Below are positions 2,369 to 17,512 of a stretch of 64,000 nt of DNA, piece by piece. The first letter of the stretch is position 1. Each line of letters starts with the position of its first letter. The translations under genes and the position numbers were made by a program. The DNA comes from Treponema socranskii subsp. paredis ATCC 35535 (GTDB lineage: Bacteria > Spirochaetota > Spirochaetia > Treponematales > Treponemataceae). The stretch lies in contig KE332515.1 of the NCBI GenBank assembly GCA_000413015.1, positions 469,092 to 533,091 on the forward strand, read 5' to 3'. Under the pieces are notes generated by a model. That model was not told the origin of the DNA and ran no database searches. It worked only from the letters and a program-made list of their open reading frames with translations.

Positions 2369-2456
2369 TTTTTTTGTGGATGTGCCGTCGGCACAAGAGG
2401 GAGCAATCCCCATACAAGACTTGCTGTAGCAAAGTAGCAGTGCAGAGGAACAAAAA

Positions 2457-3404
2457 TTGGCATTCAAAGTCACGATCATCGGAGCCGGTCAAGTAGGCTC
2501 TACGATCGCGTATTCGCTCACCGTTAAAGGCATCGCGTCTGAAATCGTAATGATCGATATCAACACGCAAAAAGCTTTGGGCGAAGCGCTCGACATCAGG
2601 CAGGGTACGCCGTTCTGCGACCCCGTAACCATCTATGCAGGGACATACGCCGATGCAAAGGATTCGGACATCGTCATTCTGACATCGGGCGTCGCGCGGA
2701 AGCCCGGACAATCCAGGCTGGATTTGGCGCAGACGAACGTCGACATCACGAAGAGCATCATCCCCGAAATCGTCAAGTATGCTTCTACGGCGATTTACGT
2801 GATTGTTTCGAATCCTGTCGATATTTTGACGTATCAATTTTACAAAATGTCGGGACTGCCGCAAAATCAGATTTTCGGTTCGGGAACGATCCTCGACACT
2901 GCCCGCCTTCGCGCACGCATTGCCGAATACTACCACATCGCACAGCAAAACGTACACGCGTACGTTTTCGGCGAACACGGAGATTCGTCGTTTATTCCGT
3001 GGTCGCTTGCAAATATCGCGACGATTCCCGTCGACGAATACAAATCCTGTCTCGAAGACAACGATAAACTGATTCCTCCGCTCATTCACGAAGAAGTCGA
3101 ATCCTATATCCGAAGTTCGGGCGGAAAGATCATCGAGCGCAAAGGGGCGACTTTTTACGCCGTGGCGATTTCGGTCGCGCACATCGTAGACTGCATCAAT
3201 AACGCCGCAGACACGACGCTCACCGTTTCCGCTATGGCGAACGGCGAATACGGCATTAAAGACGTAAGCCTTTCGATGCTTTCCGTCATCGGACGTACGG
3301 GATTTCACGGGCACTTGCTCGCGCCTCTTTCCGATATGGAAATCGTACAGATGCGGCGCAGCGCTGACTGCTTAAAAGACGCGATCAAACAGATACGGTT
3401 TTAG
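2457..3404 (+). CDS. NAD-dependent L-lactate/L-malate dehydrogenase
   Basis: The product has 315 residues. It is a cytosolic 2-hydroxyacid dehydrogenase of the LDH/MDH superfamily. It shows the Rossmann motif GAGQVGST (residues 9-16), NPVDI (119-123), LDTAR (146-150; catalytic-pair Asp and substrate-binding Arg) and GEHGDS (172-177; catalytic His174). The translation start is TTG, chosen for AGAGGAA 6 nt upstream and because GAG begins at the usual position. Overall wording is LDH-like, but the residue discriminating substrates (Gln in LDH, Arg in MDH) appears to be Arg81 in the motif GVARKPGQSR, which resembles malate dehydrogenase. A fumarase follows 265 bp downstream, so oxaloacetate reduction to malate is plausible. 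Substrate assignment is an inference. Confidence 0.85.
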   Translation: MAFKVTIIGAGQVGSTIAYSLTVKGIASEIVMIDINTQKALGEALDIRQGTPFCDPVTIYAGTYADAKDSDIVILTSGVARKPGQSRLDLAQTNVDITKSIIPEIVKYASTAIYVIVSNPVDILTYQFYKMSGLPQNQIFGSGTILDTARLRARIAEYYHIAQQNVHAYVFGEHGDSSFIPWSLANIATIPVDEYKSCLEDNDKLIPPLIHEEVESYIRSSGGKIIERKGATFYAVAISVAHIVDCINNAADTTLTVSAMANGEYGIKDVSLSMLSVIGRTGFHGHLLAPLSDMEIVQMRRSADCLKDAIKQIRF

Positions 3405-3669
3405 CATCGGCGATTTGATGTGATTGCGGACGATCGTTCGCAGGATCGGAAAAATGCGCCGAACATAAAAATCCCGTTTTAATAAAAGCAGGATTTTAAA
3501 AACCTGTTTGACATCTCGCGTCGCCGCTCCGTTACCGGTTTCTTTTTCCGAATATCATCCGCACCCGCAATCATTTCAAATTATTGATTATCAGATCGGC
3601 GAATTTCGATTTTAATAAAATTCAAAATTGAATTATTAATTTTCGATAATAATTATACGGGGAAAAGCG

Positions 3670-5061
3670 ATGGGCGATTTCAGAATTGAACACGATTCGA
3701 TGGGAGAAGTAAAAGTTCCCGCCGATAAATATTGGGGAGCGCAAACCGAGCGCAGCCATGAAAATTTCCGCATCGGTGTCGGCATTGAAACGATGCCGCG
3801 GGAAATCACAAAAGCGTTCGGGCATTTGAAAAAAGCCGCCGCGCGCGCGAACTGTGCGTTAAAGCCTGAAAAGATGACGGCGGAAAAACTTTCATGCATA
3901 GAAAAAGCCTGCGACGAAGTGATCGAAGGAAAGCTCGACGAACACTTTCCGCTCGTCGTATGGCAGACGGGAAGCGGCACGCAGTCGAATATGAACGCGA
4001 ACGAAGTGATCGCAAACCGTGCAAACGAAATCGCGGGTAAAAAGCTTTGTCATCCGAACGACGACGTCAATATGAGTCAGTCGAGCAACGATACTTTTCC
4101 GACGGCGATGCACATTGCGGCCGTCGTCGAAATCGAAGATAAACTCTTTCCGGCGATCGACTTGCTTGTATCGACGTTTAAAAAGCTCGAAGCGGTAAAC
4201 GAAAACGTCGTCAAAAGCGGGCGCACGCACTTGCAGGATGCCGTCCCGATTTCGTTCGCGCAGGAGATAAGCGGCTGGCGGACGTCCCTCGAAAAAGACA
4301 AAACCCTCATTTCATTCGCGCTTCCCGAATTGAAAGAGCTCGCTCTCGGCGGTACGGCCGTCGGTACGGGGCTCAACGCGCCTCGAGGCTTCGACGTAAA
4401 AGTTGCCGAAGAACTGTCTTCTCTCACCGGAAAGCGCTTTATCACGGCTCCGAACAAATTTCACGCGCTCACGAGTAAAGACGAAATCGTTTTTGCGCAC
4501 GGAGGCGTAAAAGCGCTCGCGGCGGATTTATTAAAAATCGCAAACGACGTGCGCTGGCTCGCTTCGGGACCGCGCTGCGGACTCGGCGAAATACATATTC
4601 CCGAAAACGAGCCGGGCTCTTCGATCATGCCGGGAAAAGTCAATCCGACGCAGTGCGAAGCGGTGACGATGGTCGCAGTGCAAGTGATGGGAAACGACGT
4701 CGCAGTAGGTATCGGCGCGAGTCAAGGCAATTTCGAACTCAACGTATTTATGCCGGTCATCGCGTATAATTTTTTGCAGTCGGTACGCCTGCTTTCCGAA
4801 GCGATCGTGTCGTTCAACGACAACTGCGCGTCGGGCATTACGGCGAACAAAGAAAAGATGCATTTCAACCTCTACAATTCGCTCATGCTCGTCACCGCGC
4901 TGAACCCCTACATCGGCTACGAAAACGCGGCAAAGACGAGTCACAAAGCGTACGAAGAAAACATTTCGCTGAAAGACGCATGCGTATCGCTCGGTTTTTT
5001 GACTGCGGAAAAATTCGACGAAGTTTTTCATCCCGAAGAAATGGCGGGCGTAAAGCGTTGA
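3670..5061 (+). CDS. fumC: Class II fumarate hydratase
   Basis: The product has 463 residues, full length for class II fumarases. These are iron-independent homotetramers interconverting malate and fumarate in the cytosol. The superfamily signature GSSIMPGKVNPTQCE is at 316-330, including the catalytic serine region. GRTHLQDAVP (184-193) carries the catalytic His, and QSSND (137-141) and GSGTQSNMN (101-109) form other parts of the active site. GGGGAAAA precedes the ATG. The upstream 265 bp is A+T-rich without a clean promoter match. The Hdr gene set begins 78 bp downstream on the same strand with no terminator between, so fumarate supply may be co-expressed with fumarate reduction. Confidence 0.95.
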   Translation: MGDFRIEHDSMGEVKVPADKYWGAQTERSHENFRIGVGIETMPREITKAFGHLKKAAARANCALKPEKMTAEKLSCIEKACDEVIEGKLDEHFPLVVWQTGSGTQSNMNANEVIANRANEIAGKKLCHPNDDVNMSQSSNDTFPTAMHIAAVVEIEDKLFPAIDLLVSTFKKLEAVNENVVKSGRTHLQDAVPISFAQEISGWRTSLEKDKTLISFALPELKELALGGTAVGTGLNAPRGFDVKVAEELSSLTGKRFITAPNKFHALTSKDEIVFAHGGVKALAADLLKIANDVRWLASGPRCGLGEIHIPENEPGSSIMPGKVNPTQCEAVTMVAVQVMGNDVAVGIGASQGNFELNVFMPVIAYNFLQSVRLLSEAIVSFNDNCASGITANKEKMHFNLYNSLMLVTALNPYIGYENAAKTSHKAYEENISLKDACVSLGFLTAEKFDEVFHPEEMAGVKR

Positions 5062-5139
5062 AGCGCGGTGCCGAACGCGGCGGGCTTTGCAAAGAGCACG
5101 ACGCGCTCGGAGAAAAGTTTTATTGAGAGGTTTTTGAGT

Positions 5140-5958
5140 ATGGACGATCACCGTATATATTCGTATTTTCCGGGATGTACGCTTCGGAACAAAGCGCTCG
5201 ATTTGGATCGCTATGCCCGTTCCTCGGCCGAAGCGCTCGGGTTTACGCTCGAAGAGATTCCCGATTGGCAATGCTGCGGCGGAACCTACCCGCTTGCAAA
5301 AGACGAAATCGCGACGAAGCTTTCATCGGTGCGCGCGCTTGCAGCCGCTCGGGATGCGAAGCGGGAACTCGTTACGATATGCTCGGCGTGTCACAACGTC
5401 ATAAAGCAGGTAAACGACGATATGAGGCGGGACGACAACGTCATCGTAAAAGTCAACAACTATTTTAAAAATGACGGCATCTCCTATCACGGGGAGACGA
5501 AGGTACTGCATTACCTCGAAGTGCTTCGCGACGCAGTCGGCTGGAAAAACGTCAAAGCGAAAGTGACGAAGCCGCTTGAGGGCAAAAAAATCGGAGCGTA
5601 CTACGGCTGTCTCCTGCTGCGGCCGGGACGCGTCATGAAGATGGACGATCCGGAAAATCCGAGCATCCTCGAAGATTTTATATCGGCGATCGGTGCGACA
5701 CCTGTGCGCTATTCGCTTCGGAACGAGTGCTGCGGCGCGTATACGATGTTCGACGGCGGAGACATTCCCGAAAAGCGATGCAAAAAAATTTTGGATAATG
5801 CCGAATCGCAGGGAGCCGAGCTGCTCGTCACAGCCTGCCCGCTCTGCCGTTATAATCTCGTAAAACACCGGAGCGCCGAAAACGCCCCTGTGTTGTATTT
5901 TACCGAACTGCTCGCCGAAGCTCTCGGCGTCAAGGAGCAATGCCGTGCTGCAGTCTGA
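5140..5958 (+). CDS. hdrB: HdrB-like subunit with two CCG domains
   Basis: The product has 272 residues and is a soluble homologue of heterodisulfide reductase subunit B. Two complete cysteine-rich CCG domains are visible: Cys13, Cys45-Cys46, Cys81, Cys84, and Cys157, Cys197-Cys198, Cys233, Cys236. In methanogen HdrB these hold two non-cubane 4Fe-4S clusters that reduce a disulfide. The start at 5140 is chosen because GAGAGG lies upstream and the family begins near YSYFPGC; an in-frame ATG at 5068 would add 24 atypical residues. It overlaps hdrC by 14 nt. Treponemes are not known to make CoM/CoB, so the natural acceptor is open. The downstream flavoprotein points to fumarate. Confidence 0.88.
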   Translation: MDDHRIYSYFPGCTLRNKALDLDRYARSSAEALGFTLEEIPDWQCCGGTYPLAKDEIATKLSSVRALAAARDAKRELVTICSACHNVIKQVNDDMRRDDNVIVKVNNYFKNDGISYHGETKVLHYLEVLRDAVGWKNVKAKVTKPLEGKKIGAYYGCLLLRPGRVMKMDDPENPSILEDFISAIGATPVRYSLRNECCGAYTMFDGGDIPEKRCKKILDNAESQGAELLVTACPLCRYNLVKHRSAENAPVLYFTELLAEALGVKEQCRAAV

Positions 5959-6340
5959 ACTCAATAAGATCCGCGATGAAATACTTTCGATCAGCGGAGT
6001 AAACGTGCGCAAGTGCATGCAGTGCGGAAAGTGTTCGGGTACTTGCCCGTCCTACGACGATATGGAATATCATCCACACGAATTCGTGCACATGGTCGAA
6101 ACCGGCGATATCGAAGCGCTTTTGAAAACGGAATCGACGTACCGCTGTCTGTCGTGTTTTGCGTGCATGGAACGCTGCCCGCGCCAAGTCGAACCTGCGA
6201 AGATCGTGGAAGCGGTGCGCACGGTCGTCGAACGAAAGCGGGGTGCGGAACACCTCGCTGCGGAAAAAGTGCCGCTTTATATCGACGGCGATATGCCGCA
6301 ACAGGCGATCGTCAGCGCATTCAGAAAGTATAGGAAGTGA
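5945..6340 (+). CDS. hdrC: HdrC-like 4Fe-4S subunit
   Basis: The product has 131 residues. It carries two classical 4Fe-4S motifs, CxxCxxCxxxC at Cys24-Cys34 and Cys68-Cys78, each followed by Pro. This matches HdrC, which relays electrons between HdrA and the CCG subunit. The start is GTG at 5945, with AAGGAG at 5932-5937; the gene begins inside the end of hdrB, so the two are translationally coupled. The length is shorter than many HdrC proteins because the C-terminus stops soon after the second cluster. Confidence 0.88.
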   Translation: MLQSELNKIRDEILSISGVNVRKCMQCGKCSGTCPSYDDMEYHPHEFVHMVETGDIEALLKTESTYRCLSCFACMERCPRQVEPAKIVEAVRTVVERKRGAEHLAAEKVPLYIDGDMPQQAIVSAFRKYRK

Positions 6341-6342
6341 GT

Positions 6343-8340
6343 ATGCGGAAAATCGGAGTTTTTGTGTGCCACTGCGGCACGAATATAGCGGGCACGGTCG
6401 ATGTCAAAGCCGTCGCGGACGCGCTCGGAAAAGAAGCGGGCGTCGTCTTTTCGACGGACTACACCTATATGTGCTCTCAGACGGGTCAGGATCTCATAGC
6501 CGACACGATAAAAGAACATGAGCTCGGCGGAGTCGTCGTGTGTTCCTGCTCGCCTCGTATGCATGAAGCGACATTCCGAAAGTGTGCGGAAAAAGCGGGC
6601 ATCAATCCCTATCTTCTCGAAGTCGCAAATATTCGCGAACAGGATTCGTGGATATGTAAAGACATGCCGACGGCGACGGCAAAGGCGATTTCGCTCGGAA
6701 AAGCGGCTATCGCAAAAGTGCTGTTAAATGAACCGCTCACTGCAGGCGAAACGCCGGTCACCAAGCGCGCTCTCGTCATCGGCGGAGGCATCGCGGGCAT
6801 CCAGACGGCGATCGATATCGCCGACGCGGGTTTTCCGGTAGATATCGTCGAAGCGAAGCCGACGATCGGCGGCAAAATGGCGCAGCTCGACAAAACCTTT
6901 CCGACACTCGACTGTGCGGCCTGTATCCTCACGCCGCGCATGGTCGAATGCGGACAAAATGAAAATATCAGAATCCTCTCGTACAGCGAAGTGACGGATA
7001 TCAAAGGATTCGTCGGAAACTTTACCGTGACGATAAAGCGCAAAGCGCGCTACGTCGACGAAACGAAATGTACGGGCTGCGGCGAATGCGTGCAAAAGTG
7101 TCCGCAAAAAAAAGTGCCGAACGAATTCAATATGAATCTCGACAAGCGCTCCGCAATCTATATTCCCTTTGCGCAAGCCGTTCCGAAAATCGCGACAATC
7201 GATGCCGCACACTGCATGAAGCTCACGTCGGGAAAATGCGGCGTCTGTTCGATGGTGTGTCAGGCGAAGGCGATCGACTACGGTGCGAAAGATACGTTCA
7301 TCGAAGAAAAATACGGAGCCATCGTCGCCGCAACCGGCTACAATCCGATCGACTTGTCGAAGTTCGACGAGTTCGCGTATTCGCAAAGCAAAGACGTCGT
7401 ATCGTCCCTCGAATTCGAACGCCTTATGAATGCGGCAGGCCCTACCGGCGGTACCCTGCTCCGCCCTTCCGACGGCAAGCATCCCAAAACGATCGTATTT
7501 GTCCAATGCGTCGGAAGCCGCTGTTCGGCGGATGCGGAAAAAGGTCATGAATACTGTTCGAAAATCTGCTGTATGTACACGGCAAAGCACGCGATCCTCA
7601 CGAGAGACCACTACCCCGATACGGAGTGCTACGTATTTTATATCGACGTGCGCACACCGGGAAAAAACTTCGACGAATTTTACCGGAGGGCGGTCGAACA
7701 GTACGGCGTACACTATATCAAGGGTATGGTCGGAAAAGTGTCCGTCGAAGAAGACGGCACGCTCGACGTGCAAGGCTCGGATCTGCTCATGGATAAGCAA
7801 GTACACATCAAAGCCGACATGGTCGTGCTTGCCGCTTCCATCGAAGCGGATAAGTCCGCGCGCTCATTGGCGACGATGCTCACCGCGAGTATGGACACGA
7901 ACGACTTTTTTACCGAAGCGCATCCGAAGCTCCGCCCCGTCGAAAGCCCGACTGCGGGCGTCTATCTTTCAGGCTGCGCGCAGGGACCGAAGGATATTCC
8001 CGAAACGGTTTCGCAGGCAAGCGCGGCGGCAAGTAAAGTCATCGGCCTCCTCGTAAAGGATAAACTGAAAAACAATCCCTGCGTCGCCGAATCCGACGAA
8101 GCGATGTGCAACGGCTGCTCGCAGTGCGAAAACGTATGCCCCTACGGCGCGATCACGTATATCGATAAAGACTTCCGCGGCATAAACCGCACGACGGTAA
8201 CACGCCGAGTCGCGCAGGTAAACCCCGCCGTCTGTCAAGGCTGCGGCGCGTGTACGGTCGCCTGTCCCTCGGGAGCGATGGATCTCAAAGGATTTACGAA
8301 TAAAGAAATCATGGCGGAGGTCGATGCTTTATGTCTGTAA
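6343..8340 (+). CDS. hdrA: HdrA-like FAD/iron-sulfur subunit
   Basis: The product has 665 residues and is the flavin-containing core of Hdr complexes; in methanogens its FAD is the site of electron bifurcation. It starts IGVFVCHCGTNIAGTVD as typical HdrA does. It has a Rossmann FAD motif GGGIAG at 147-152, the CAAC motif near 191-194, a 4Fe-4S motif at Cys243-Cys254 and another Cys set near 288-303. Two C-terminal ferredoxin motifs (CNGCSQCENVCP and CQGCGACTVACP) complete it. ATG at 6343 is preferred to an in-frame GTG at 6337 because TAGGAAG then has normal spacing. It follows hdrC by 2 nt and overlaps the next gene by 10 nt. Confidence 0.92.
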   Translation: MRKIGVFVCHCGTNIAGTVDVKAVADALGKEAGVVFSTDYTYMCSQTGQDLIADTIKEHELGGVVVCSCSPRMHEATFRKCAEKAGINPYLLEVANIREQDSWICKDMPTATAKAISLGKAAIAKVLLNEPLTAGETPVTKRALVIGGGIAGIQTAIDIADAGFPVDIVEAKPTIGGKMAQLDKTFPTLDCAACILTPRMVECGQNENIRILSYSEVTDIKGFVGNFTVTIKRKARYVDETKCTGCGECVQKCPQKKVPNEFNMNLDKRSAIYIPFAQAVPKIATIDAAHCMKLTSGKCGVCSMVCQAKAIDYGAKDTFIEEKYGAIVAATGYNPIDLSKFDEFAYSQSKDVVSSLEFERLMNAAGPTGGTLLRPSDGKHPKTIVFVQCVGSRCSADAEKGHEYCSKICCMYTAKHAILTRDHYPDTECYVFYIDVRTPGKNFDEFYRRAVEQYGVHYIKGMVGKVSVEEDGTLDVQGSDLLMDKQVHIKADMVVLAASIEADKSARSLATMLTASMDTNDFFTEAHPKLRPVESPTAGVYLSGCAQGPKDIPETVSQASAAASKVIGLLVKDKLKNNPCVAESDEAMCNGCSQCENVCPYGAITYIDKDFRGINRTTVTRRVAQVNPAVCQGCGACTVACPSGAMDLKGFTNKEIMAEVDALCL

Positions 8341-8831
8341 AAAACGATATGCAGCCGAAGACTGTCGATTCGGCTGCCGGAAACGATGTTCCCGAAAAAA
8401 GAAGTGCATTCAAACCGAAGATCGTAGCCTTTTGCTGCAACTGGTGTTCGTACGCGGGAGCGGATTTGGCCGGCAGCAACCGCCTCGAATATCCCGCCGA
8501 TGTCAAAATCATCCGCATCCCCTGTTCGTGCCGATTAAACCCGATCTTTATCCTGCGCGCGTTTCAGCGGGGAGCCGACGGCGTCATCCTCTGCGGCTGT
8601 CACCCCGGAGACTGCCACTATACGAGCGGCAACTATTTTGCAAGACGGCGCATGACGCTCCTCTTTTCCATGCTCGAATTCCTCGGAATCGAAAAAGGAA
8701 GGACGAGAGTCGAATGGGTGTCCGCGGCGGAAGGTGCGAAATTTGCCAAAACGATGCATGAATTCGTCGAGACTATAACGGCGCTCGGAGAAAACAAACG
8801 GCTGGAGGATTTACGATGCAAAGCGAAATGA
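8331..8831 (+). CDS. flxD: MvhD/FlxD-like electron-transfer subunit
   Basis: The product has 166 residues. It matches the MvhD/FlpD family, the small 2Fe-2S protein that docks an electron-donating module onto HdrA. Family wording is clear: KPKIVAFCCNWCSYAGADLA near 28-47, IRIPCSCRLNP near 63-73, and DGVILCGCHPGDCHY near 83-97, which supply the conserved cysteines. About 25 N-terminal residues precede the family start and are charged and low in complexity. GGAGG lies 10 nt upstream of the ATG. Its position between hdrA and two iron-sulfur genes is where an NADH-side (Flx) module would be joined to Hdr. Confidence 0.88.
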   Translation: MSVKNDMQPKTVDSAAGNDVPEKRSAFKPKIVAFCCNWCSYAGADLAGSNRLEYPADVKIIRIPCSCRLNPIFILRAFQRGADGVILCGCHPGDCHYTSGNYFARRRMTLLFSMLEFLGIEKGRTRVEWVSAAEGAKFAKTMHEFVETITALGENKRLEDLRCKAK

Positions 8832-9790
8832 CCGGCGAATTGGTAAGCCGCGCAAAAGCGCTGCTTGCGGATAAAACCGTACAGCTCGTGCTCGGCTGGA
8901 GAAGAGGCCTTTTCGATTACGATGTGACGCCTTCGCTTTTTACGTCGGCGGACGATGTCGAAAAAAACTTCGTATACAACGAATACAGCGCGGCGAACTT
9001 GTCGAAATACCTCGTCAAAGAAACGCGCAAAATCGAAACGGCGAAAAATACCGTGCGCGCGAACAACGCGCTTGCAAAACAAAAAGACGCAAACGCCGAA
9101 ACGCAGGCGGAACCCGAAGCGAAAATACTCGTGTTTTTAAAACCCTGCGACACCTACAGCTTTACCGAATTGCTGAAAGAACACCGCATTTTCAGAAGCG
9201 ATGTATACGCGATCGGCGTTCCGTGCGACGGCATGAAAGACCCGGAAAAACAAGAACTGTCCGAACGCTGTGCCGTGTGTAAAAGCAAAAAACACATCGG
9301 CTGCGACGAACTTATCGGAGAAGACGGAGACGTACGGGATTCCGCGCGATTCGACGAAGTTGCAAAGCTCGAAGCGATGACGGAAGAAGAACGCTTTGCG
9401 TTTTGGCAAAACGAACTTTCGCGCTGTATCCGCTGCAACGCGTGCCGCGACGTCTGTCCCGCCTGTACTTGTACGACGTGCGTATTCGACAACCCCGCAT
9501 CCGGCGCTGCACAAAAAGTCGCCGCATCGAGTTTCGAAGAGAGCATGTACCATATCATCCGCGCGTGGCACGTTGCAGGCCGTTGTACCGACTGCGGCGA
9601 ATGCTCGCGCGTGTGTCCCCAGCATATCCCGCTGCACCTCATCAATCGAAAATTTATTAAAGACATCGACGAACTCTACGGTTCTTATACGGCGGGAAGC
9701 GATATGGAAACAAAGCCGCCGATGCTCACGTATCGGACAGACGACGCGGAGCCCGGCATCATCTATTCGCGTTCGGGAGGTACGTTATGA
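8816..9790 (+). CDS. flxC: 4Fe-4S protein, FlxC-like
   Basis: The product has 324 residues and is probably cytosolic. The central part holds FLKPCDTYSFTELL and RCAVCKSKKHIGC, found in coenzyme F420 hydrogenase-like and AsrA-like proteins. The C-terminal third has two 4Fe-4S motifs, CIRCNACRDVCPAC and CTDCGECSRVCP, near residues 203-216 and 259-270. A charged insertion near 65-102 is Lys/Ala/Glu-rich. It starts with GGAGG upstream, overlaps flxD by 16 nt and overlaps the next gene by the ATGA arrangement. By position and cysteine pattern it corresponds to an iron-sulfur subunit of a FlxABCD-HdrABC type complex; whether it is strictly FlxC or FlxB is uncertain. Confidence 0.75.
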   Translation: MQSEMTGELVSRAKALLADKTVQLVLGWRRGLFDYDVTPSLFTSADDVEKNFVYNEYSAANLSKYLVKETRKIETAKNTVRANNALAKQKDANAETQAEPEAKILVFLKPCDTYSFTELLKEHRIFRSDVYAIGVPCDGMKDPEKQELSERCAVCKSKKHIGCDELIGEDGDVRDSARFDEVAKLEAMTEEERFAFWQNELSRCIRCNACRDVCPACTCTTCVFDNPASGAAQKVAASSFEESMYHIIRAWHVAGRCTDCGECSRVCPQHIPLHLINRKFIKDIDELYGSYTAGSDMETKPPMLTYRTDDAEPGIIYSRSGGTL

Positions 9791-10854
9791 GAACTTTCGT
9801 ATCGCTGCCGTTTGAAAAACTCGACGAACTCTTTGCCCTCATCGCACAAAAGGAAGCGCTGTATATTCCCGTAGACGACGCATCGGGTAAAGCCGATTTT
9901 AAACGCTGGAAAAAAGGCGCCGTCCTTTCGTCCGAGCTTAAAACGGTGAGATCGGCAAAAGATTTTTTCTTTCCGAAAATCGAAAACCTCGTGCACTACA
10001 AACTTTCAGGCAAAAAAATCGAAGTCGAAGATCCGCGTACCGAATCGGAAGACTTTATCGTTTTCGGAGTGCGCGCGTGCGACGCTGCGAGTTTTGCGAT
10101 CGTCGATGCCGTGTACATCAATATGCAGCCGGTCGACACCTACTACAAAACGCGGCGTGAACACGGCACCGTCGTCACGCTCGCCTGCTCGGAACCGAAA
10201 GAAACCTGTTTTTGCAAACTCTACGGGATCGATGCCGCCGAGCCGCAAGGAGATGCGAGCGCATGGATCGCCGACGGAAAGGTCTTTTTCCGCGCGAACA
10301 CCGAAAAAGGCGACGCGTTTATCGAAATCATCAAAAGCATGACGAGCGAGAGCAGCGCGGATATCGTCGAAAAACAGCAAAAGGCTACGCGGGAAAAAAT
10401 CGACAAACTGCCTTTCGTCGATATCGACCTTTCGAAATTTCGCGGCGAAAACATGCTTTCGATTTTCAATCTGCCGGTGTGGGAAAATCTTTCGGAAGCA
10501 TGCTTGGGCTGCGGCACTTGTACATACGTGTGTCCGACGTGTATGTGTTTTGACATCAGGAGTTTCGATACCGGATGCGGCATACGGCAGTTCCGCTGCT
10601 GGGACAGCTGTATGTTTTCGGACTTTACGAAGATGGCGGCGGAAAATCCGCGGCACACGCAAAAGGAGCGCTTCCGTCAGCGCTTTATGCACAAGCTCGT
10701 GTATTATCCGATGGATCACGGCGGCGTTTACAGCTGCGTCGGCTGCGGAAGATGCCTCGAAAGCTGCCCCATCCGCATGAACATCGTAAAAGTTATGAAA
10801 ACGATAAACGACGATGCCCGAATCGAAAAGCCGGAGGTACACGATGGAAAATGA
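9787..10854 (+). CDS. flxB: 4Fe-4S dicluster protein, FlxB/AsrA-like
   Basis: The product has 355 residues. It resembles the AsrA/HydB group, iron-sulfur proteins that pass electrons between an FAD/NAD-binding partner and the rest of a complex. The motif FGVRACDAASFAIVD lies near 94-108. Two C-terminal 4Fe-4S motifs follow, CLGCGTCTYVCPTC near 239-252 and CVGCGRCLESCP near 318-329. Between them, CWDSCMFSDF is the usual linker. It starts inside the stop of the preceding gene (ATGA) and overlaps flxA by 11 nt. This pairing with an AsrB-like protein is the normal arrangement for this family. Confidence 0.8.
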   Translation: MRTFVSLPFEKLDELFALIAQKEALYIPVDDASGKADFKRWKKGAVLSSELKTVRSAKDFFFPKIENLVHYKLSGKKIEVEDPRTESEDFIVFGVRACDAASFAIVDAVYINMQPVDTYYKTRREHGTVVTLACSEPKETCFCKLYGIDAAEPQGDASAWIADGKVFFRANTEKGDAFIEIIKSMTSESSADIVEKQQKATREKIDKLPFVDIDLSKFRGENMLSIFNLPVWENLSEACLGCGTCTYVCPTCMCFDIRSFDTGCGIRQFRCWDSCMFSDFTKMAAENPRHTQKERFRQRFMHKLVYYPMDHGGVYSCVGCGRCLESCPIRMNIVKVMKTINDDARIEKPEVHDGK

Positions 10855-11671
10855 CATGTTGATTCCGTACATCGGCGTGATCACCGACATACGCGATGAA
10901 ACGGGAGACGTAAAGACTTTCCGCGTAGTCGGACGCGACGGAAAAAAATTGTTTTACCACAAGCCCGGTCAGTGCGCGATACTCTCCGTTCCGGGCATCG
11001 GGGATTCCATGATTTCGATAACGTCTTCTCCGACGGTCGAAGCATATCAGGAGTTCAGCATAAAAAAATGCGGATGCGTCACGTCGTGGCTGCATGCGGC
11101 CGAAAAAGGACAGGAGATAGGCGTGAGAGGCCCGCTCGGAAACGGCTTTCCCGTCGACACCGTTTTTAAAGGCAAAGACTTGCTCTTTGTCGCAGGCGGC
11201 ATAGGCTTGGCTCCGCTTCGAAGCGTCATCAATTACGTCCGTTCTCACCGAAGCGATTACGGCAAAGTGACGATCGTTTACGGTTCACGCTCGAAACAGG
11301 ATCTCGTCGCATACAAAGAGATCACCGAAGAGTGGATGAAAGCTCCGGACTTTACCGTATATTTAACGATCGATAAAGCCCAAGACGATTGGGACGGTCA
11401 CGTCGGTTTTGTGCCGCCCTATGTCAAAGAGCTCAACCCCGATACGAGTATGACGGCGATCATGTGCGGTCCGCCCATCCTCATCCACTTGACGCTCGCC
11501 GGACTCAATGAGCTCGGCTTTAAAGATACGCAGATATTTACGACGATGGAGATGCGTATGAAATGCGGCATCGGAAAATGCGGCAGATGCAATATCGGCA
11601 ACAAGTACGTATGCAAAGACGGGCCGGTGTTTTCGTTCGACGAACTCGGAGCCCTTCCGCCCGAATATTGA
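10844..11671 (+). CDS. flxA: FAD/NAD(P)H-binding subunit, FlxA/AsrB-like
   Basis: The product has 275 residues of the ferredoxin-NADP reductase superfamily. It has an N-terminal FAD-binding barrel (to about residue 100), an NAD-binding lobe with GGIGLAPLRS near 115-124, and a C-terminal 2Fe-2S cysteine set with KCGIGKCGRC near 240-249. Proteins of this type bring NADH into AsrABC, HydABC-like and FlxABCD complexes. The start at 10844 is chosen for GGAGG upstream; an in-frame ATG 30 nt earlier has none. It gives the Hdr complex a plausible NADH entry point. There are 55 bp to the next gene and no visible terminator. Confidence 0.85.
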   Translation: MENDMLIPYIGVITDIRDETGDVKTFRVVGRDGKKLFYHKPGQCAILSVPGIGDSMISITSSPTVEAYQEFSIKKCGCVTSWLHAAEKGQEIGVRGPLGNGFPVDTVFKGKDLLFVAGGIGLAPLRSVINYVRSHRSDYGKVTIVYGSRSKQDLVAYKEITEEWMKAPDFTVYLTIDKAQDDWDGHVGFVPPYVKELNPDTSMTAIMCGPPILIHLTLAGLNELGFKDTQIFTTMEMRMKCGIGKCGRCNIGNKYVCKDGPVFSFDELGALPPEY

Positions 11672-11726
11672 CGGGCAAAAGGAAATCAAGGAAACGCGAT
11701 ATTAATAATTTAAAGAGGATTATGCC

Positions 11727-12404
11727 ATGTCGGAAAAATTGATAAACATTTACCTGTTCGGAAAACGATATGAAGTGCCCGAACATCTGACGATCATGAA
11801 TGCGATGGAATACGCCGGTTACGAACTCGTGCGCGGCTGCGGGTGCAGAAACGGTTTTTGCGGCGCATGCGCGACGGTGTACCGCATCAAAGGACAAAAC
11901 CGCCTGCACACGTGCTTGGCGTGCCAGACAAAAGTCGTCGACAATATGTACATCGCGACGCTGCCGTTTTTTCCGCTCGTAAAACAAGTGTACGACATCG
12001 ACGCGGTCACGGCCGAACAGCGGATCATGATGGAGCTCTATCCCGAAATCTACGCGTGTGTCGGCTGCAATGCGTGTACGCGCGCATGTCCGCAAAACTT
12101 GCGCGTCATGCAGTACATCGCCTATGCACAGCGCGGCGAATTTCAAAACTGCGCGGACGAATCTTTCGACTGCGTTATGTGCGGCATCTGCTCATCGCGC
12201 TGTCCGGCAGAAATCAGCCATCCCCAAGTAGCCGAACTCGCGCGCCGCTTAAACGGCAAATATATCCAGCCGGAAGCAAAGCATTTGACCGAACGCGTCG
12301 AAGAGATCAAAGACGGAAAATTCGAAAGTCTGATTCAAAATCTCATGGCAAAGCCGATCGATCAAATCAAAGAGCTGTACAACAGCCGCGACATCGAAGC
12401 GTAA
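11727..12404 (+). CDS. 2Fe-2S/4Fe-4S subunit, fumarate reductase-type
   Basis: The product has 225 residues. The N-terminal ferredoxin domain has plant-type 2Fe-2S cysteines Cys38, Cys40, Cys45, Cys48 and a distal pair Cys63/Cys66. The C-terminal half has two 4Fe-4S motifs, CVGCNACTRACP (111-122) and CVMCGICSSRCP (149-160), as in the N-terminal part of SdhB/FrdB and of methanogen TfrB. It lacks the CCG domains present at the C-terminus of TfrB; these exist as the separate HdrB protein encoded at 5140. AGAGGA precedes the ATG. It should wire the flavoprotein encoded 17 bp downstream to the Hdr/Flx proteins. Confidence 0.85.
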   Translation: MSEKLINIYLFGKRYEVPEHLTIMNAMEYAGYELVRGCGCRNGFCGACATVYRIKGQNRLHTCLACQTKVVDNMYIATLPFFPLVKQVYDIDAVTAEQRIMMELYPEIYACVGCNACTRACPQNLRVMQYIAYAQRGEFQNCADESFDCVMCGICSSRCPAEISHPQVAELARRLNGKYIQPEAKHLTERVEEIKDGKFESLIQNLMAKPIDQIKELYNSRDIEA

Positions 12405-12421
12405 CGAAAAGGAGCGTGAAT

Positions 12422-14032
12422 ATGTATACGGGCATTATGAACGAGTCGGCGGAAAAGGTCGCCGCAAAGAGAAAGGAAAACGCCGCATTTGAACCGCGCC
12501 GCATGAGTGCTGAAGAAAAAGACGCCGTACTGCGGGAATATCATCCCGATCATATAACGGAGCAGTTTACCGAACTTACAATCGGGCCGAATAAGGGTGA
12601 AAAAACGCCTCTTGAGCTTGCGGAAATTTTACAAGGCATGCCGCGCATAGAACCTGAAAAAATCGATTTGACGAAAGCCGATTACGAAACCGACGTACTC
12701 ATCATCGGAGGAGGTGGTGCGGGAACGGCGGCTGCGATCGAAGCTGACAACGCGGGCGCAAAAGTGCTCCTCGTCACAAAACTCCGCGTCGGAGATGCGA
12801 ACACGATGATGGCCGAAGGCGGCATTCAAGCGGCCGACAAAGCGAACGATTCGCCCGAACGACACTTTCTCGACGCTTTCGGCGGCGGTCACTTCGACGC
12901 AAAAAAGGAACTCGTTTACGAACTCGTCACCCGTGCGCCCGAAACGATCCGGTGGCTCAACACGCTCGGCGTCGAATTCGACAAAGAAAAAGACGGCACG
13001 ATGATTACGACGCACGGAGGCGGCACGAGCAGAAAGCGCATGCACGCGTGCAAAGATTATTCGGGCGCCGAAATCATGCGCACGCTCCGCGATGAAGTTT
13101 TAAATCGCGCCGAGCACATCACCGTCGTTGATTTTACGAGCGCGGTGGAATTATTAAAAGATGAAAAAGGAAACTGCGCCGGTGCCGTACTCATGAACAT
13201 GGAGACGAAAGAGCTGCTCGTCGCAAAGGCGAAAGCCGTCATCATCGCGACGGGGGGAGCCGGACGCATGCACTATCAGGGCTTTCCGACGTCGAACCAC
13301 TACGGCGCGACGGCGGACGGACTCGTGCTCGCGTATCGCGCGGGCGCAAAACTCCTCTATCAGTATTCGCTCCAATACCATCCGACCGGCGTCGCCTATC
13401 CGCAGCAAGTGTTCGGTGCGCTCGTTACAGAAAAAGTGCGCTCACTCGGCGCAAAAGTGTGCAATATCGACGGGGACGCTTTTATCCATCCGCTTGAAAC
13501 GCGAGACGTGGAAGCGGCGGGCATCATCCGCGAAGTAAAAAAAGGCAAGGGTATTCCGACGGGTATGGGAGAAGGCGTGTGGCTCGACACGCCGATGATC
13601 GAGTTGAAAAACGGCGAAGGTACGATCGAAAAACGCATACCCGCAATGCTGCGCATGTTCGAAAAATACGACATCGATATCAGGCGCGATCCGATCCTCG
13701 TCTACCCTACCCTGCACTATCAAAACGGCGGTGTCGAAATCGACAGGGAGTGCAAAACGAATATCGGAAACCTCTTCGTCGCAGGCGAAGCATCCGGCGG
13801 TATTCACGGAACGAACCGTCTCATGGGAAACTCGCTTTTGGACGTCGTCGTCTTCGGACGCATCGCGGGAACGGCGGGCGCACGAGAGGCGCAAAAAAAC
13901 GCGATGCCGGAAAAGCTTTCGCTCGAACACGTAAAGGATTTCGAAAAAGAGAGGGCAGCGGCCGGCATAAAAACGCAAACGCTCTCGCCCCGCCTTTTGC
14001 CGCATTATACGCATAGAGACGGCGAACTCTAA
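12422..14032 (+). CDS. Fumarate reductase/succinate dehydrogenase-type flavoprotein
   Basis: The product has 536 residues. It has an N-terminal extension of about 90 residues, then the FAD motif IIGGGGAGTAAA (94-105). Active-site features of the fumarate reductase superfamily follow: HGGGTSR (198-204), HPTG (320-323), Arg340 where the proton-relay Arg is expected, YPTLHYQNGG (428-437), and GEASGGIHGTNRLMGNS (455-471). The usual RGEGG is replaced by RSLGA, so this is a divergent branch. No Tat or Sec signal is present, so it acts in the cytosol. AAAGGAG precedes the ATG. Succinate formation from fumarate fits the upstream fumarase; L-aspartate oxidase is less likely in this operon. Confidence 0.85.
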   Translation: MYTGIMNESAEKVAAKRKENAAFEPRRMSAEEKDAVLREYHPDHITEQFTELTIGPNKGEKTPLELAEILQGMPRIEPEKIDLTKADYETDVLIIGGGGAGTAAAIEADNAGAKVLLVTKLRVGDANTMMAEGGIQAADKANDSPERHFLDAFGGGHFDAKKELVYELVTRAPETIRWLNTLGVEFDKEKDGTMITTHGGGTSRKRMHACKDYSGAEIMRTLRDEVLNRAEHITVVDFTSAVELLKDEKGNCAGAVLMNMETKELLVAKAKAVIIATGGAGRMHYQGFPTSNHYGATADGLVLAYRAGAKLLYQYSLQYHPTGVAYPQQVFGALVTEKVRSLGAKVCNIDGDAFIHPLETRDVEAAGIIREVKKGKGIPTGMGEGVWLDTPMIELKNGEGTIEKRIPAMLRMFEKYDIDIRRDPILVYPTLHYQNGGVEIDRECKTNIGNLFVAGEASGGIHGTNRLMGNSLLDVVVFGRIAGTAGAREAQKNAMPEKLSLEHVKDFEKERAAAGIKTQTLSPRLLPHYTHRDGEL

Positions 14033-14126
14033 AAAACGGGTTCGGCAAAGCGTTTTTGCCGTGTGACAAAGGACAGAGCTGCCGCCGAAAGTGCAGCTGA
14101 TTTTACATTACAGGTTAGGAGGAACT

Positions 14127-14474
14127 ATGGAACATCAAGTACTTGAATTTCTCGGCATTCTGAAAGGCGGCGTATTTTACCCCGCGAGCATTCTCGAATC
14201 GATTATGATTTTGTGCTTCGGTCTTTCGTGGCCGATGTCGATCGCTCGTTCGCTGAAATCGAAATCGACAAAGGGCAAAAGCCTTTTGTTTATGTGCTTT
14301 ATCGCGTTCGGCTATATCTGCGGCATAAGCGCAAAGCTCCTCGAGCACAAATACAACCTCGCCTTTTGGTTTTATATTCCGAACATCGTCATGGTGACGA
14401 CGGATATATGCCTTTACTTTCGGAATAAGCGAATCGAAAATTCGCTCGGCGAAACGATTATCGTCGAAGCGTAA
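14127..14474 (+). CDS. Small three-helix membrane protein at operon end
   Basis: The product has 115 residues with three hydrophobic segments near 20-40, 52-68 and 80-98. The wording FGLSWPMSIARS at the end of the first segment recalls PQ-loop (SemiSWEET-like) repeats, but the match is weak. TTAGGAGG lies just upstream of ATG 14127, which rules out an in-frame ATG 36 nt earlier. It is the last gene before a strong terminator and follows the flavoprotein by 94 bp. It could be a membrane partner of the reductase or a transporter for a related metabolite. No heme or quinone site is evident. Confidence 0.7.
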   Translation: MEHQVLEFLGILKGGVFYPASILESIMILCFGLSWPMSIARSLKSKSTKGKSLLFMCFIAFGYICGISAKLLEHKYNLAFWFYIPNIVMVTTDICLYFRNKRIENSLGETIIVEA

Positions 14475-14486
14475 TTTTCATTCACC

Positions 14487-14529
14487 CGTCCGCTTCGATA
14501 AGGTCGCGCAAGCGGACGAGCCTTTTTTT
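14487..14529 (+). terminator. Terminator of the Hdr/fumarate reductase operon
   Basis: CGTCCGCTT (14487-14495) pairs perfectly with AAGCGGACG (14510-14518) across a 14-nt loop, followed by T7 at 14523-14529. It separates this operon from the convergent cyclase gene. Confidence 0.85.
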
Positions 14530-14532
14530 CCG

Positions 14533-17373
14533 TCACTTCGTCGTCATATTCATCACTCCGTCCCAATCGTCGGGAATGCCGTGCTTGAGGTAGTCTTTGC
14601 AGCGTTCTGCGAACACGAGAGACGCTTCGTCGGCAGGATTCAGTTTATTCGCATTCATAAACATTTTTCCCGCCTTTTTAAAATCCCGTGCGAGATATCT
14701 GTCGAGTGCTTCGTGAAATTCGCCGAGGGATGCAAGTTCATCGGGCGGCATTTCGTTTTTAAACCCGAGTATATTGTACAGCTGTACGGGCTTATTGATA
14801 CCGACGACGCGCACTTTATCGAGTCTGCGGGAGACGAGTTCGCCTTTATGTTCGCCCGAATCGGCTTCGTTCCACGTCGTTTCCGAAATGAGGATCCACG
14901 ATTTGTAGATTTTATTGACGCCTTCAAGGCGGCTCGCGAGGTTGACGTCGTTGCCCATGATCGTATAATTCATCTTCATACTCGTACCCATATTTCCGAC
15001 GACCATATTGCCCGTGTTGATGCCGATCCGCGTTTCGAGCTCGCGCGGGATGTCTCTGTGAGCGAGATGCTTTTCGTTGTACAGTTTTTCAGCCTGCTTC
15101 ATGCGCACGGCCGCGGCACAGGCGCGGTAAGCGTGATCGGGCAAATCGATCGGTGCGCCGAAAAACGAAACGATCGCGTCTCCGATGTATTTGTCGATCG
15201 TGCCGTTGTAACGCAAAATCGTATCGCTGAGCAAACCGAGGTATTCGTTCAAAATCGATACGAGCTGAGTCGGCGTGACGAGTTCGCTGAACGATGAAAA
15301 ACCTTTGATATCGGAAAAAAGCGCGGTTATGTGTTTGTCTTCTCCGCCGAGCGAAAGCTTTTCGGGATCTTCGACGATCGCGTTGACGACGTCTTTTGAA
15401 AGGTAGGTCGAAAATGCGCGGCGCAAAAATCTTTTTTCGCGGTCGCTGAGCGTAAAGCGCAAAATGATTCCCGCAACATATATGAAAAGCGTAAAAAGGC
15501 AGGATGCGACGGGCGGAATATAATAACCCGGCACGATCATAAAAAATACGAAGACGCTTACGATGAGAAAGACCGCTATGCCGGTTACGACATTCTGCAT
15601 CATATCGGATCTGCCGTAGGTGATGAACATGACGAAAAACATTAACAAAAAGGCTGCGATCATACCGAAATACCACGGAAACGGAGTGATAAAATCGCGC
15701 TGCAAAATCGTGTTCATGACGTTCGCGTGCGTGCCGACGTTCGGATAACTTCGCGTAAACGGGTTCGTTCCGAGGTCGGTCGTACTCGATGCGGTGTTTC
15801 CTATGATACAGTACGACGCGCGGTATACGTCTTTCATATCGTTTACGTACTGCCGGTAGGTTTTATAATTGTCGGAAAGGAGTCCGAATTGCTCTTTCAT
15901 GACATCGATAAAATTTTCACCCTGCTCTTCAGGCAGTCCCGCTTTTAAAAGTTCCGCAATACGCGCTTCGATCGAGTTCATATATCCGGCATCGATAAAC
16001 AAACCGATATCGTCGTAAAAGGCTTCTCGTGCGGCAAAGTAGGCTTCGTATTCGTTTGCGTTTATCCCGTCGATGAGCTCGCCGTTTTCGTTGAAACCCG
16101 CGCACCGCGCAAGCAGTATCTGTTTTTCTTCGTCGATCATTTTATATTGTTTTAATAATTTTTGTGCCGCTCCCATATAGCCGAGTGCGCTCCCGTCGGA
16201 GGCGAACAGTTCATTACCCCGTATATTGCCGAGAGTTGTGACGACGGCTTCTTCGATAAAATCGAGATCTTTCAAAAAGACCACCGATTCGTTTTTAAAC
16301 GATTTTCCCTGCTCTCTATGGAGCCAGTTGATAAGCATGCGTCCGTGGCCGTCGAGCGGGATCTTTACGGTCGTTTTCTCCGTCTCTCCGGGAAAGAGCG
16401 CGTTGAACACGATGAGCGAGTTTTGCGTGCGCTCTATGCGTTCCGCATTGAGTATGTGCAAAAGCGGGGCAAACGAAAGCTGAGCCGCATATTTTCCGCC
16501 GTAATCGTAGAGCAGTTCGATCCTCCGCCGAGTACCGTCGCTGTCGATGACGACGTTCGTAAAGCCCGCGCCCGCCGCACGAGAGATGAGCGTATGAAGC
16601 GCCGGAGAAAATCCCGTCTTTTGTCCGTTATACTGTTCGTCTGACGTATATTGATTGGCGCGTGAAATAAAACCGCCGGAGTCGGTGACGTTCGAAAGCA
16701 AAATGCGTTTTTGCGCGTAATTTCTGTCTTCGTCGGAAAGCGTGATCGCAACGTCGCGCGTATTTACGGTAAGCCACGTGTTGCCGAAAAATTGGATCGC
16801 CCGTGCGAAATAGTCGTCGTTATCGCGGTATATTTTCGATGCGATATCGGTCTGCATATTCGAAAGCGCGGGATCGATATAATTGGCGATCATATCTTTC
16901 GTCACGGCCGAAAGCTCGGAACGGGAAACGAAACCGCGCCTGACCGATTCGGAAAACTCGTTGATGACGCCCGTGATGTCGTTCCGTCCGGCCGAAATCG
17001 CAGCGTTCATATTTTCTTCGGCGTTCGGCGCCACCCCGCGCGGAGAAGGCGAAAGGTATTCGACATCGAAAACGACGCTTTCCGCGCCGAGCTCGCGTAT
17101 GCGCAAAAGACAATCGGCGATGATATCGCGGCTCCACGGCCATTCGCCGAGCGCTTGAATCGATTCGTCGTCGATGTTGACGAATAAAATCTTTTCCGAT
17201 TGTTTCGGTTCTCTTCGGAGGCCGAGCAAAAAGTCGTACATACGGTAATCGAGTTTTTGGAAAAATCCCAAAGCGCCGAGCGCCGAAAAAACGGCTGCGG
17301 CCGCAACGAGAACGATAAAACCGAGAGATTTAAAAAAAGACGAGCTTTTTTTTGTTTTCTTTTCCTGTGCCAT
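14533..17373 (-). CDS. CHASE2-domain class III adenylate/guanylate cyclase
   Basis: The product has 946 residues. After a basic N-terminus there is one membrane helix (about 17-37), then a long extracytoplasmic CHASE2 sensor domain (about 45-590; it starts YRMYDFLLGLR, ILFVNIDDESI, WPWSRD). Three to four membrane helices follow (about 600-690), then a class III nucleotide cyclase domain (about 720-900). Metal-binding Asp residues are visible in FSDIKGF and YIGDAIV, and VNLASRLEG supplies the transition-state Asn and Arg. Thr in NYTIMGN sits at the base-selecting position, as in bacterial adenylate cyclases. It is not in an operon, and its promoter places the start codon about 4 nt after the predicted transcript start. 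Confidence 0.9.
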   Translation of the reverse strand: MAQEKKTKKSSSFFKSLGFIVLVAAAAVFSALGALGFFQKLDYRMYDFLLGLRREPKQSEKILFVNIDDESIQALGEWPWSRDIIADCLLRIRELGAESVVFDVEYLSPSPRGVAPNAEENMNAAISAGRNDITGVINEFSESVRRGFVSRSELSAVTKDMIANYIDPALSNMQTDIASKIYRDNDDYFARAIQFFGNTWLTVNTRDVAITLSDEDRNYAQKRILLSNVTDSGGFISRANQYTSDEQYNGQKTGFSPALHTLISRAAGAGFTNVVIDSDGTRRRIELLYDYGGKYAAQLSFAPLLHILNAERIERTQNSLIVFNALFPGETEKTTVKIPLDGHGRMLINWLHREQGKSFKNESVVFLKDLDFIEEAVVTTLGNIRGNELFASDGSALGYMGAAQKLLKQYKMIDEEKQILLARCAGFNENGELIDGINANEYEAYFAAREAFYDDIGLFIDAGYMNSIEARIAELLKAGLPEEQGENFIDVMKEQFGLLSDNYKTYRQYVNDMKDVYRASYCIIGNTASSTTDLGTNPFTRSYPNVGTHANVMNTILQRDFITPFPWYFGMIAAFLLMFFVMFITYGRSDMMQNVVTGIAVFLIVSVFVFFMIVPGYYIPPVASCLFTLFIYVAGIILRFTLSDREKRFLRRAFSTYLSKDVVNAIVEDPEKLSLGGEDKHITALFSDIKGFSSFSELVTPTQLVSILNEYLGLLSDTILRYNGTIDKYIGDAIVSFFGAPIDLPDHAYRACAAAVRMKQAEKLYNEKHLAHRDIPRELETRIGINTGNMVVGNMGTSMKMNYTIMGNDVNLASRLEGVNKIYKSWILISETTWNEADSGEHKGELVSRRLDKVRVVGINKPVQLYNILGFKNEMPPDELASLGEFHEALDRYLARDFKKAGKMFMNANKLNPADEASLVFAERCKDYLKHGIPDDWDGVMNMTTK

Positions 17374-17383
17374 ACTGTCTTTC

Positions 17384-17412
17384 AGTATAACACAAATTTA
17401 CGCATCTGTCAG
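17384..17412 (-). promoter_or_regulatory. Promoter of the CHASE2 cyclase, very short leader
   Basis: On the minus strand, CTGACA (17407-17412), 17 bp, TATACT (17384-17389), then 10 nt to ATG at 17373. No Shine-Dalgarno motif is present in those 10 nt. Confidence 0.6.
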
Positions 17413-17417
17413 AGAGT

Positions 17418-17448: not shown

Positions 17449-17456
17449 CCCGTCGA

Positions 17457-17499: not shown

Positions 17500-17512
17500 G
17501 TCGCACATAAAA

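What the first reader, a model, noticed from the sequence alone, without database searches (positions are those of the whole stretch)
5140..14474. HdrABC-Flx-type operon ending in a fumarate reductase: candidate NADH-driven, electron-bifurcating fumarate reduction
Seen: nine genes read one way with overlaps or short gaps encode HdrB, HdrC, HdrA, MvhD/FlxD, two iron-sulfur proteins, an FAD/NAD-binding protein, a 2Fe-2S/4Fe-4S protein and a Frd-type flavoprotein, then a small membrane protein and one terminator. Known: HdrABC-MvhAGD of methanogens and FlxABCD-HdrABC of Desulfovibrio couple two electron transfers at the HdrA flavin. Inference: electrons from NADH enter at FlxA, split at HdrA, and one branch reaches fumarate while the other reduces ferredoxin. 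Fumarase and a malate/lactate dehydrogenase gene sit directly upstream. A quinone-free, soluble fumarate reductase of this kind would be a distinct energy-conserving route in a spirochaete.
Basis: partly seen in the sequence, partly recalled or inferred. Interest (0 to 1): 0.85.

Follow-up and report, generated by a model that had tools for sequence, protein, structure and literature searches.

The report
Bifurcating NADH–fumarate reductase operon in treponemes
This oral treponeme carries one operon for making succinate, in which an iron-sulfur/flavin enzyme probably uses NADH to reduce fumarate without any quinone and saves part of the energy as reduced ferredoxin; the same operon was already described in a clostridium and turns out to be common in gut treponemes and clostridia, but its chemistry has never been tested.

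Summary
Window 5140-14474 encodes HdrB-HdrC-HdrA-FlxD-FlxC-FlxB-FlxA-FrdB-FrdA and a small SemiSWEET-like membrane protein, preceded by malate dehydrogenase and class II fumarase. The organism is Treponema socranskii or a near neighbour. The nine-gene order holds in all 80 best loci of a GTDB scan (Treponema plus Clostridia; short contigs show only part). In 200 Treponema genomes FlxA and FrdB are both present in 98 and both absent in 92; the 10 discordant cases lie at contig ends. All iron-sulfur and active-site residues are conserved, FAD would be non-covalent, and the genome has no UbiA-type prenyltransferase (no known quinone route). A soluble NAD(P)H-linked fumarate reductase complex is therefore very likely (about 0.85). 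Ferredoxin-producing bifurcation at HdrA is the best explanation (about 0.65) but is inferred only. It is not a new kind: the same operon and hypothesis were published for Pseudoclostridium thermosuccinogenes (PMC7282089 and the preprint it cites). New here: its breadth in treponemes including T. succinifaciens, two separate acquisitions, variants showing FrdBA can join HdrABC without FlxABC, and SucE-family or SemiSWEET-like transporters in the last slot.

The parts
2457..3404 (+). malate dehydrogenase (LDH-like family, Arg102 type); oxaloacetate to malate
   Evidence: Ldh_1_N/C; NCBIfam L-LDH over cut-off; Arg at position 102 in the relatives aligned; upstream neighbour in most loci
3670..5061 (+). 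class II fumarase FumC; malate to fumarate
   Evidence: TIGR00979 710.8 bits, over cut-off
5140..5958 (+). HdrB, two CCG motifs (non-cubane 4Fe-4S clusters)
   Evidence: ligand Cys invariant in about 96 homologues
5945..6340 (+). HdrC, two 4Fe-4S
6337..8340 (+). HdrA, FAD and 4Fe-4S clusters; proposed bifurcation site
   Evidence: (5odc_A E 2e-200, cluster cysteines aligned); single copy in genome
8331..8831 (+). FlxD / MvhD, 2Fe-2S link to HdrA
8816..9790 (+). FlxC, 4Fe-4S adaptor; C-terminal part like FdhB of the Fdh-Mvh-Hdr complex
9787..10854 (+). FlxB, 4Fe-4S, like sulfhydrogenase beta subunit
10844..11671 (+). FlxA, FAD/NAD(P)H-binding with 2Fe-2S; electron entry
   Evidence: relatives start near this ATG
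11727..12404 (+). FrdB-like: N-terminal 2Fe-2S (TfrB/FrdB-like) plus HdrC-like pair of 4Fe-4S clusters; no CCG domain
   Evidence: (hhalign to HdrC 95.5%)
12422..14032 (+). FrdA, fumarate reductase flavoprotein (TfrA-like), non-covalent FAD expected, short C-terminus
   Evidence: active-site His/Arg/Glu invariant in about 113 homologues
14127..14474 (+). three-helix SemiSWEET-like membrane protein; candidate succinate exporter (hypothesis)
14487..14528 (+). probable intrinsic terminator (hairpin 14487-14518 then T-run)
   Evidence: not listed by the consensus scan

Best explanation
The operon encodes one soluble complex, HdrABC-FlxABCD-FrdAB, that carries out the last step of succinate fermentation. 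Proposed route: NADH gives a hydride to FlxA FAD; electrons pass through the FlxA 2Fe-2S, FlxB and FlxC 4Fe-4S and the FlxD 2Fe-2S centres to HdrA FAD. There the pair is split: one electron goes via HdrC and HdrB to FrdB and on to FrdA, reducing fumarate (+33 mV); the other goes via the HdrA ferredoxin domains to ferredoxin. Net: 2 NADH + fumarate + 2 Fd(ox) -> 2 NAD+ + succinate + 2 Fd(red). Rnf can then oxidise ferredoxin and build an ion gradient. Shown: genes, order, co-retention, intact cofactor and catalytic residues, absence of a quinone prenyltransferase, Rnf present. Inferred: complex formation, NADH rather than NADPH, direct HdrB-FrdB contact, bifurcation.
For: Same order in all 80 GTDB loci and in further Spirochaetota loci. 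FlxA and FrdB in 200 genus genomes: 98 both, 92 neither, 10 discordant at contig ends; both kept where FrdBA have moved away (G104, G132, G177, G200: 26, 49, 46). FrdBA and HdrA/FlxDA trees both show two Treponema lineages, one nested in Clostridia, distance correlation 0.94. HdrA keeps all ferredoxin-domain and core cysteines of 5odc_A. FrdA keeps residues matching E. coli FrdA H232, E245, R287, H355, R390, and Asn replaces the covalent-FAD His (24, 31, 90). FrdB has a fourth Cys (CxxCxxCxxxCP) where quinol enzymes bind 3Fe-4S. No UbiA in the genome, 14/14 controls positive. RnfC present; operon and Rnf associated, odds ratio 7.2. T. succinifaciens, a named succinate producer, carries it. In L184 HdrABC sits with FrdBA without FlxABC (84-86). 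Standard dG about -33 to -49 kJ/mol for Fd -500 to -420 mV. The P. thermosuccinogenes operon is induced about 4-fold under CO2 limitation.
Against: I found no biochemistry for this complex. HdrABC homologues do not by themselves prove bifurcation (PMC5861303). L186 has Flx-FrdBA with long HdrA proteins and no detectable HdrB, so the HdrB-FrdB step is not universal. FlxA's closest solved relative is a subunit of an NADPH-dependent enzyme. 20 of 108 operon genomes showed no RnfC (most of them incomplete). FrdB fold search gave only partial low-TM matches.
Confidence: 0.65

Rival explanations
1. Soluble NADH:fumarate reductase of the same composition that does not bifurcate: both electrons of each pair go to fumarate and HdrA is only a relay.
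For: Direct NADH-to-fumarate transfer is strongly downhill (-68 kJ/mol); homologues of bifurcating proteins are not proof of bifurcation (PMC5861303); a soluble NADH-dependent fumarate reductase is known from Hydrogenobacter (own knowledge; the term is found in papers).
Against: HdrA keeps every ferredoxin-domain cysteine in about 105 homologues; a plain relay would not need HdrA/C/B; association with Rnf.
Confidence: 0.17
2. Flx-Hdr and FrdAB are separate enzymes joined by a diffusible thiol/disulfide carrier, as in thiol:fumarate reductase (CoM-SH/CoB-SH) or the DsrC link in Desulfovibrio.
For: HdrB normally reduces disulfides; FrdA scores best with TfrA; Flx-Hdr of D. vulgaris is thought to use DsrC (PMC10084766).
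Against: No DsrC in the genome; FrdB lacks the CCG domain with which TfrB oxidises thiols; FrdB carries an HdrC-like dicluster domain suited to direct docking; FrdB directly follows HdrB in L184.
Confidence: 0.13
3. The complex runs backwards, oxidising succinate with ferredoxin (confurcation) to make NADH.
For: Flx-Hdr is thought to be reversible in Desulfovibrio.
Against: Mdh and FumC sit in the same cluster, transporter genes of the family that includes a succinate exporter follow it in many loci, and named carriers make succinate (48, 10).
Confidence: 0.04

Closest known systems
'Succinate operon' of Pseudoclostridium thermosuccinogenes (PMC7282089; preprint 10.20944/preprints201912.0288.v1, not readable here)
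   Same: Fumarase, seven Flx-Hdr genes, two fumarate reductase genes, then a hypothetical protein proposed as succinate transporter; same bifurcation hypothesis.
   Different: Spirochaete host; malate dehydrogenase also in the cluster; SemiSWEET-like protein in the last slot here. I could not compare its sequences directly.
FlxABCD-HdrABC of Desulfovibrio vulgaris
   Same: All seven subunit types; NADH-driven, proposed bifurcation.
   Different: Desulfovibrio partner is DsrC and ethanol metabolism; no FrdBA; no DsrC in this genome.
tfrAB interspersed with flxABCD-hdrABC in rTCA clusters (Thioflavicoccus, Escarpia and Riftia symbionts; PMC6315080, PMC11636981)
   Same: Fumarate reductase next to Flx-Hdr, same wiring proposed.
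   Different: Autotrophic rTCA setting, korABCD interspersed, TfrAB-type reductase.
MvhADG-HdrABC / Fdh-Mvh-Hdr of methanogens (5odc, 7bkb)
   Same: HdrABC and MvhD homologous, FlxC like FdhB.
   Different: NAD(P)H module instead of hydrogenase or formate dehydrogenase; fumarate reductase as acceptor instead of CoM-S-S-CoB.
Thiol:fumarate reductase TfrAB
   Same: FrdA best NCBIfam match TfrA; FrdB N-terminus like TfrB.
   Different: FrdB lacks the CCG domain; HdrB is a separate protein.

Membership tests
FlxABCD-HdrABC NADH dehydrogenase/heterodisulfide reductase | HdrA, HdrB, HdrC, MvhD-type FlxD and sulfhydrogenase-type FlxA/B plus FlxC all present and linked | tested here: met
FlxABCD-HdrABC NADH dehydrogenase/heterodisulfide reductase | cofactor ligands of HdrA, HdrB, HdrC, FlxA-D intact | tested here: met
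   ligand-type Cys invariant or nearly so in about 100 homologues
FlxABCD-HdrABC NADH dehydrogenase/heterodisulfide reductase | NADH oxidation coupled to ferredoxin reduction | not testable with these tools
   needs purified complex
FlxABCD-HdrABC NADH dehydrogenase/heterodisulfide reductase | DsrC-like disulfide partner (a feature of the Desulfovibrio branch, not of the whole family) | tested here: not met
   no DsrC in the genome; partner proposed here is FrdBA
Flx-Hdr-FR succinate operon (P. thermosuccinogenes type) | gene set: fumarase, seven Flx-Hdr genes, two fumarate reductase genes, transporter candidate | tested here: met
   against the description in PMC7282089; order and number from text, not sequence
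Flx-Hdr-FR succinate operon (P. thermosuccinogenes type) | succinate is a fermentation product of carriers | tested here: met
   T. succinifaciens chromosome (G222:C1, 2,731,853 bp, same as PMC3156407) has the cluster (43, 46, 48); the window organism itself not tested
Thiol:fumarate reductase TfrAB | TfrB with C-terminal CCG (HdrB-like) domain | tested here: not met
   FrdB is 225 aa without CCG
Thiol:fumarate reductase TfrAB | oxidises CoM-SH and CoB-SH | not testable with these tools
   biochemical
Quinol:fumarate reductase / succinate dehydrogenase (complex II) | fumarate/succinate active-site residues | tested here: met
Quinol:fumarate reductase / succinate dehydrogenase (complex II) | covalent FAD via His | tested here: not met
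   Asn127 in all 114 homologues
Quinol:fumarate reductase / succinate dehydrogenase (complex II) | 3Fe-4S next to a quinone site | tested here: not met
   four-Cys motif instead, sequence inference; host lacks UbiA
MvhADG-HdrABC | NiFe hydrogenase subunits in the complex | tested here: not met
   operon has none

The most novel reading that the evidence does not exclude
FrdBA is an exchangeable fumarate-acceptor module of the HdrABC bifurcation core: the NADH version (HdrABC-FlxABCD-FrdBA, with Mdh, FumC and a SucE-like or SemiSWEET-like exporter) is a standard quinone-free, ferredoxin-yielding succinate route of gut and oral treponemes and many Clostridia, moved between the phyla as a unit, and other versions (HdrA2-type HdrABC-FrdBA with class I fumarase and aldehyde:ferredoxin oxidoreductase) run on other donors.
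Probability: 0.5. Interest if true: 0.72.

Novelty: new member of a known kind. Interest (0 to 1): 0.5.

Why it matters
If true, fumarate is a terminal acceptor for HdrA-based electron bifurcation, and succinate formation in treponemes and many gut clostridia yields reduced ferredoxin (hence ion gradient or H2) instead of wasting a -68 kJ/mol step. It would explain how succinate-forming spirochaetes such as T. succinifaciens, whose genus largely lacks quinone prenyltransferases, conserve energy at fumarate. The operon's breadth (hundreds of species) makes an untested biochemical proposal worth one purification.

Tried and rejected
Quinone-linked fumarate reductase: rejected (no UbiA; no covalent-FAD His; no 3Fe-4S motif). 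A weak MqnA-family hit (34.6 bits) was not followed; without UbiA it does not make a quinone. Other FAD_binding_2 proteins of the genome as the fumarate reductase: the seven strongest others carry FMN_bind domains, several with lipoprotein-like or signal-like N-termini, so they are a different, probably extracytosolic kind; that some of them also reduce fumarate is not excluded. L-aspartate oxidase: FrdA scores higher with TfrA than NadB (349 vs 270 bits) and has an iron-sulfur partner. Strict either/or replacement of the AspT-family transporter by the small membrane protein: not upheld, since four loci hold both nearby. FrdB fold search: matches only to parts (2Fe-2S domains of bifurcating enzymes, HdrC), low TM, inconclusive. 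The 2019 preprint is not held. Fine-scale conflicts between the FrdBA and Hdr/Flx trees (17 pairs of supported splits) were not resolved; quick trees only.
Full report
1. What is there. The window (47% GC) lies in a 2.74-Mb two-contig genome. By FrdB (99%) and concatenated trees (98-99%) the nearest named genome is Treponema socranskii ATCC 35536. The cluster reads mdh 2457-3404, fumC 3670-5061, hdrB 5140-5958, hdrC 5945-6340, hdrA 6337-8340, flxD 8331-8831, flxC 8816-9790, flxB 9787-10854, flxA 10844-11671, frdB 11727-12404, frdA 12422-14032, a small membrane protein 14127-14474 and a hairpin-plus-T-run.

2. Identity of the subunits. HdrA aligns over its full length with the methanogen HdrA of 5odc, with the N-terminal, core, inserted-ferredoxin and C-terminal ferredoxin cysteines retained. 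HdrB has both CCG motifs. FlxD is MvhD. FlxA and FlxB match the gamma and beta subunits of Pyrococcus sulfhydrogenase, the NAD(P)H module. FlxC matches in its C-terminal half the FdhB subunit of the Fdh-Mvh-Hdr complex; I read it as the adaptor between FlxB and FlxD (inference). FrdA keeps the residues corresponding to E. coli FrdA H232, E245, R287, H355 and R390, has Asn where quinol enzymes bind FAD covalently, and lacks the C-terminal Sdh/Frd domain. FrdB has a TfrB/FrdB-like 2Fe-2S domain and an HdrC-like dicluster domain, with four cysteines where quinol enzymes have a three-cysteine 3Fe-4S motif, and no CCG domain. About 100 homologues keep all these ligands.

3. It is a unit. In the same-genus loci, in all 80 best loci of a GTDB scan with FrdB (Treponema, Ruminococcus- and Oscillospiraceae-type MAGs, Eubacterium coprostanoligenes, Avitreponema) and in more distant treponemes the order is HdrB-C-A-FlxD-C-B-A-FrdB-A, usually after Mdh-FumC; short contigs show only part of it. 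In 200 same-genus genomes FlxA and FrdB are both present in 98 and both absent in 92; the 10 discordant cases lie at contig ends. In a few genomes (G104, G132, G177, G200) FrdBA lie apart from Flx yet both are kept. These counts are not corrected for relatedness. Trees of FrdBA and of HdrA+FlxD+FlxA both need two Treponema origins, the second (L073, L113, L126) nested among Clostridia, with distance correlation 0.94: the operon moved as a unit at least once.

4. Physiological setting. The genome has no UbiA-family prenyltransferase, although all 14 control genomes score, and among 108 operon-bearing Treponema genomes only one, 75% complete, has one over the cut-off. RnfC is present and associated with the operon across the genus (88/108 versus 35/92). 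DsrC is absent. HdrA is single-copy. T. succinifaciens, recognised by its exact chromosome length of 2,731,853 bp (PMC3156407), carries the whole 11-gene cluster (L145); it makes acetate, formate, succinate and lactate and fixes CO2 into succinate.

5. Variants that inform the mechanism. In L184 (another family of the phylum) class I fumarase subunits precede an HdrA2-type HdrA-MvhD fusion, HdrC, HdrB, FrdB, FrdA and an aldehyde:ferredoxin oxidoreductase, with no FlxABC. In L186 two long HdrA-type proteins, HdrC and FlxD-C-B-A precede FrdB-FrdA and no HdrB was found. So FrdBA can be joined to the Hdr core with or without the NAD(P)H module: this favours direct wiring over a diffusible carrier, but the HdrB contact may not be obligatory.

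6. Mechanism and its limits. Best explanation: NADH -> FlxA -> FlxB -> FlxC -> FlxD -> HdrA, then HdrC/HdrB/FrdB/FrdA to fumarate and the HdrA ferredoxin domains to ferredoxin. Standard energetics allow it (about -49 kJ/mol at Fd -420 mV, -33 at -500 mV). A soluble NAD(P)H:fumarate reductase complex I hold at about 0.85; bifurcation at 0.65. Homology alone does not prove bifurcation (PMC5861303).

7. The last gene. The slot after FrdA holds an AspT-family (PF06826) transporter in 56 loci and the small membrane protein in 13 plus a few contig-end cases; 24 loci have neither directly there. The AspT/AAEx family includes the C. glutamicum succinate exporter SucE1 (PMC9527358). The small protein models as three helices (pLDDT 74) and its eight best PDB matches are SemiSWEETs (probability 0.96-1.00, E 0.07-0.4); its Pfam PQ-loop score is below cut-off. 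A succinate-export role is a hypothesis (about 0.25).

8. Novelty. PMC7282089 describes in P. [quoted passage not shown] PMC6315080 and PMC11636981 propose similar wiring for rTCA clusters. The window's operon is therefore a new member of a known, unproven kind. I found no paper in the library that reports it in treponemes.

Noticed in passing
L184 (G452) 2451-11763, minus strand: Class I fumarase AB, HdrA2-type HdrA-MvhD fusion whose MvhD part has lost most cysteines, HdrC, HdrB, FrdB, FrdA and aldehyde:ferredoxin oxidoreductase, without FlxABC: a version I have not seen described, presumably with another electron donor.
   Followed up: partly
L186 (G261) 4083-17844 and L185 (G225) 6330-11793: FlxD-C-B-A-FrdBA with two roughly 1000-residue HdrA-type proteins and no HdrB (L186); in L185 a LolA-like protein is fused in frame to the FlxC C-terminus and no Hdr genes were found next to it (deletion or assembly error).
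   Followed up: partly
window 14127-14474 and the slot after FrdA in other loci: SemiSWEET-like small membrane protein or AspT/SucE-family transporter directly after FrdA; possible succinate exporters.
   Followed up: partly
L001-L004, L006-L008 (same genome): At least seven FMN_bind + FAD_binding_2 proteins, several with lipoprotein-like N-termini, typical of extracytosolic flavinylated reductases.
   Followed up: partly
L041 4807-8975; L045 703-8157; G104:C13: Unrelated genes (ABC transporter sets and others) lie between FlxA and FrdB, or FrdBA lie over 20 kb away, yet both parts are kept.
   Followed up: yes
window 2457-3404: Scores above cut-off as L-lactate dehydrogenase in NCBIfam, but Arg102 points to malate dehydrogenase; likely misannotated in public genomes.
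   Followed up: yes
window 14533-17373, minus strand: Large convergent gene whose sequence looks like a CHASE2-adenylate/guanylate cyclase, directly behind the terminator.
   Followed up: no
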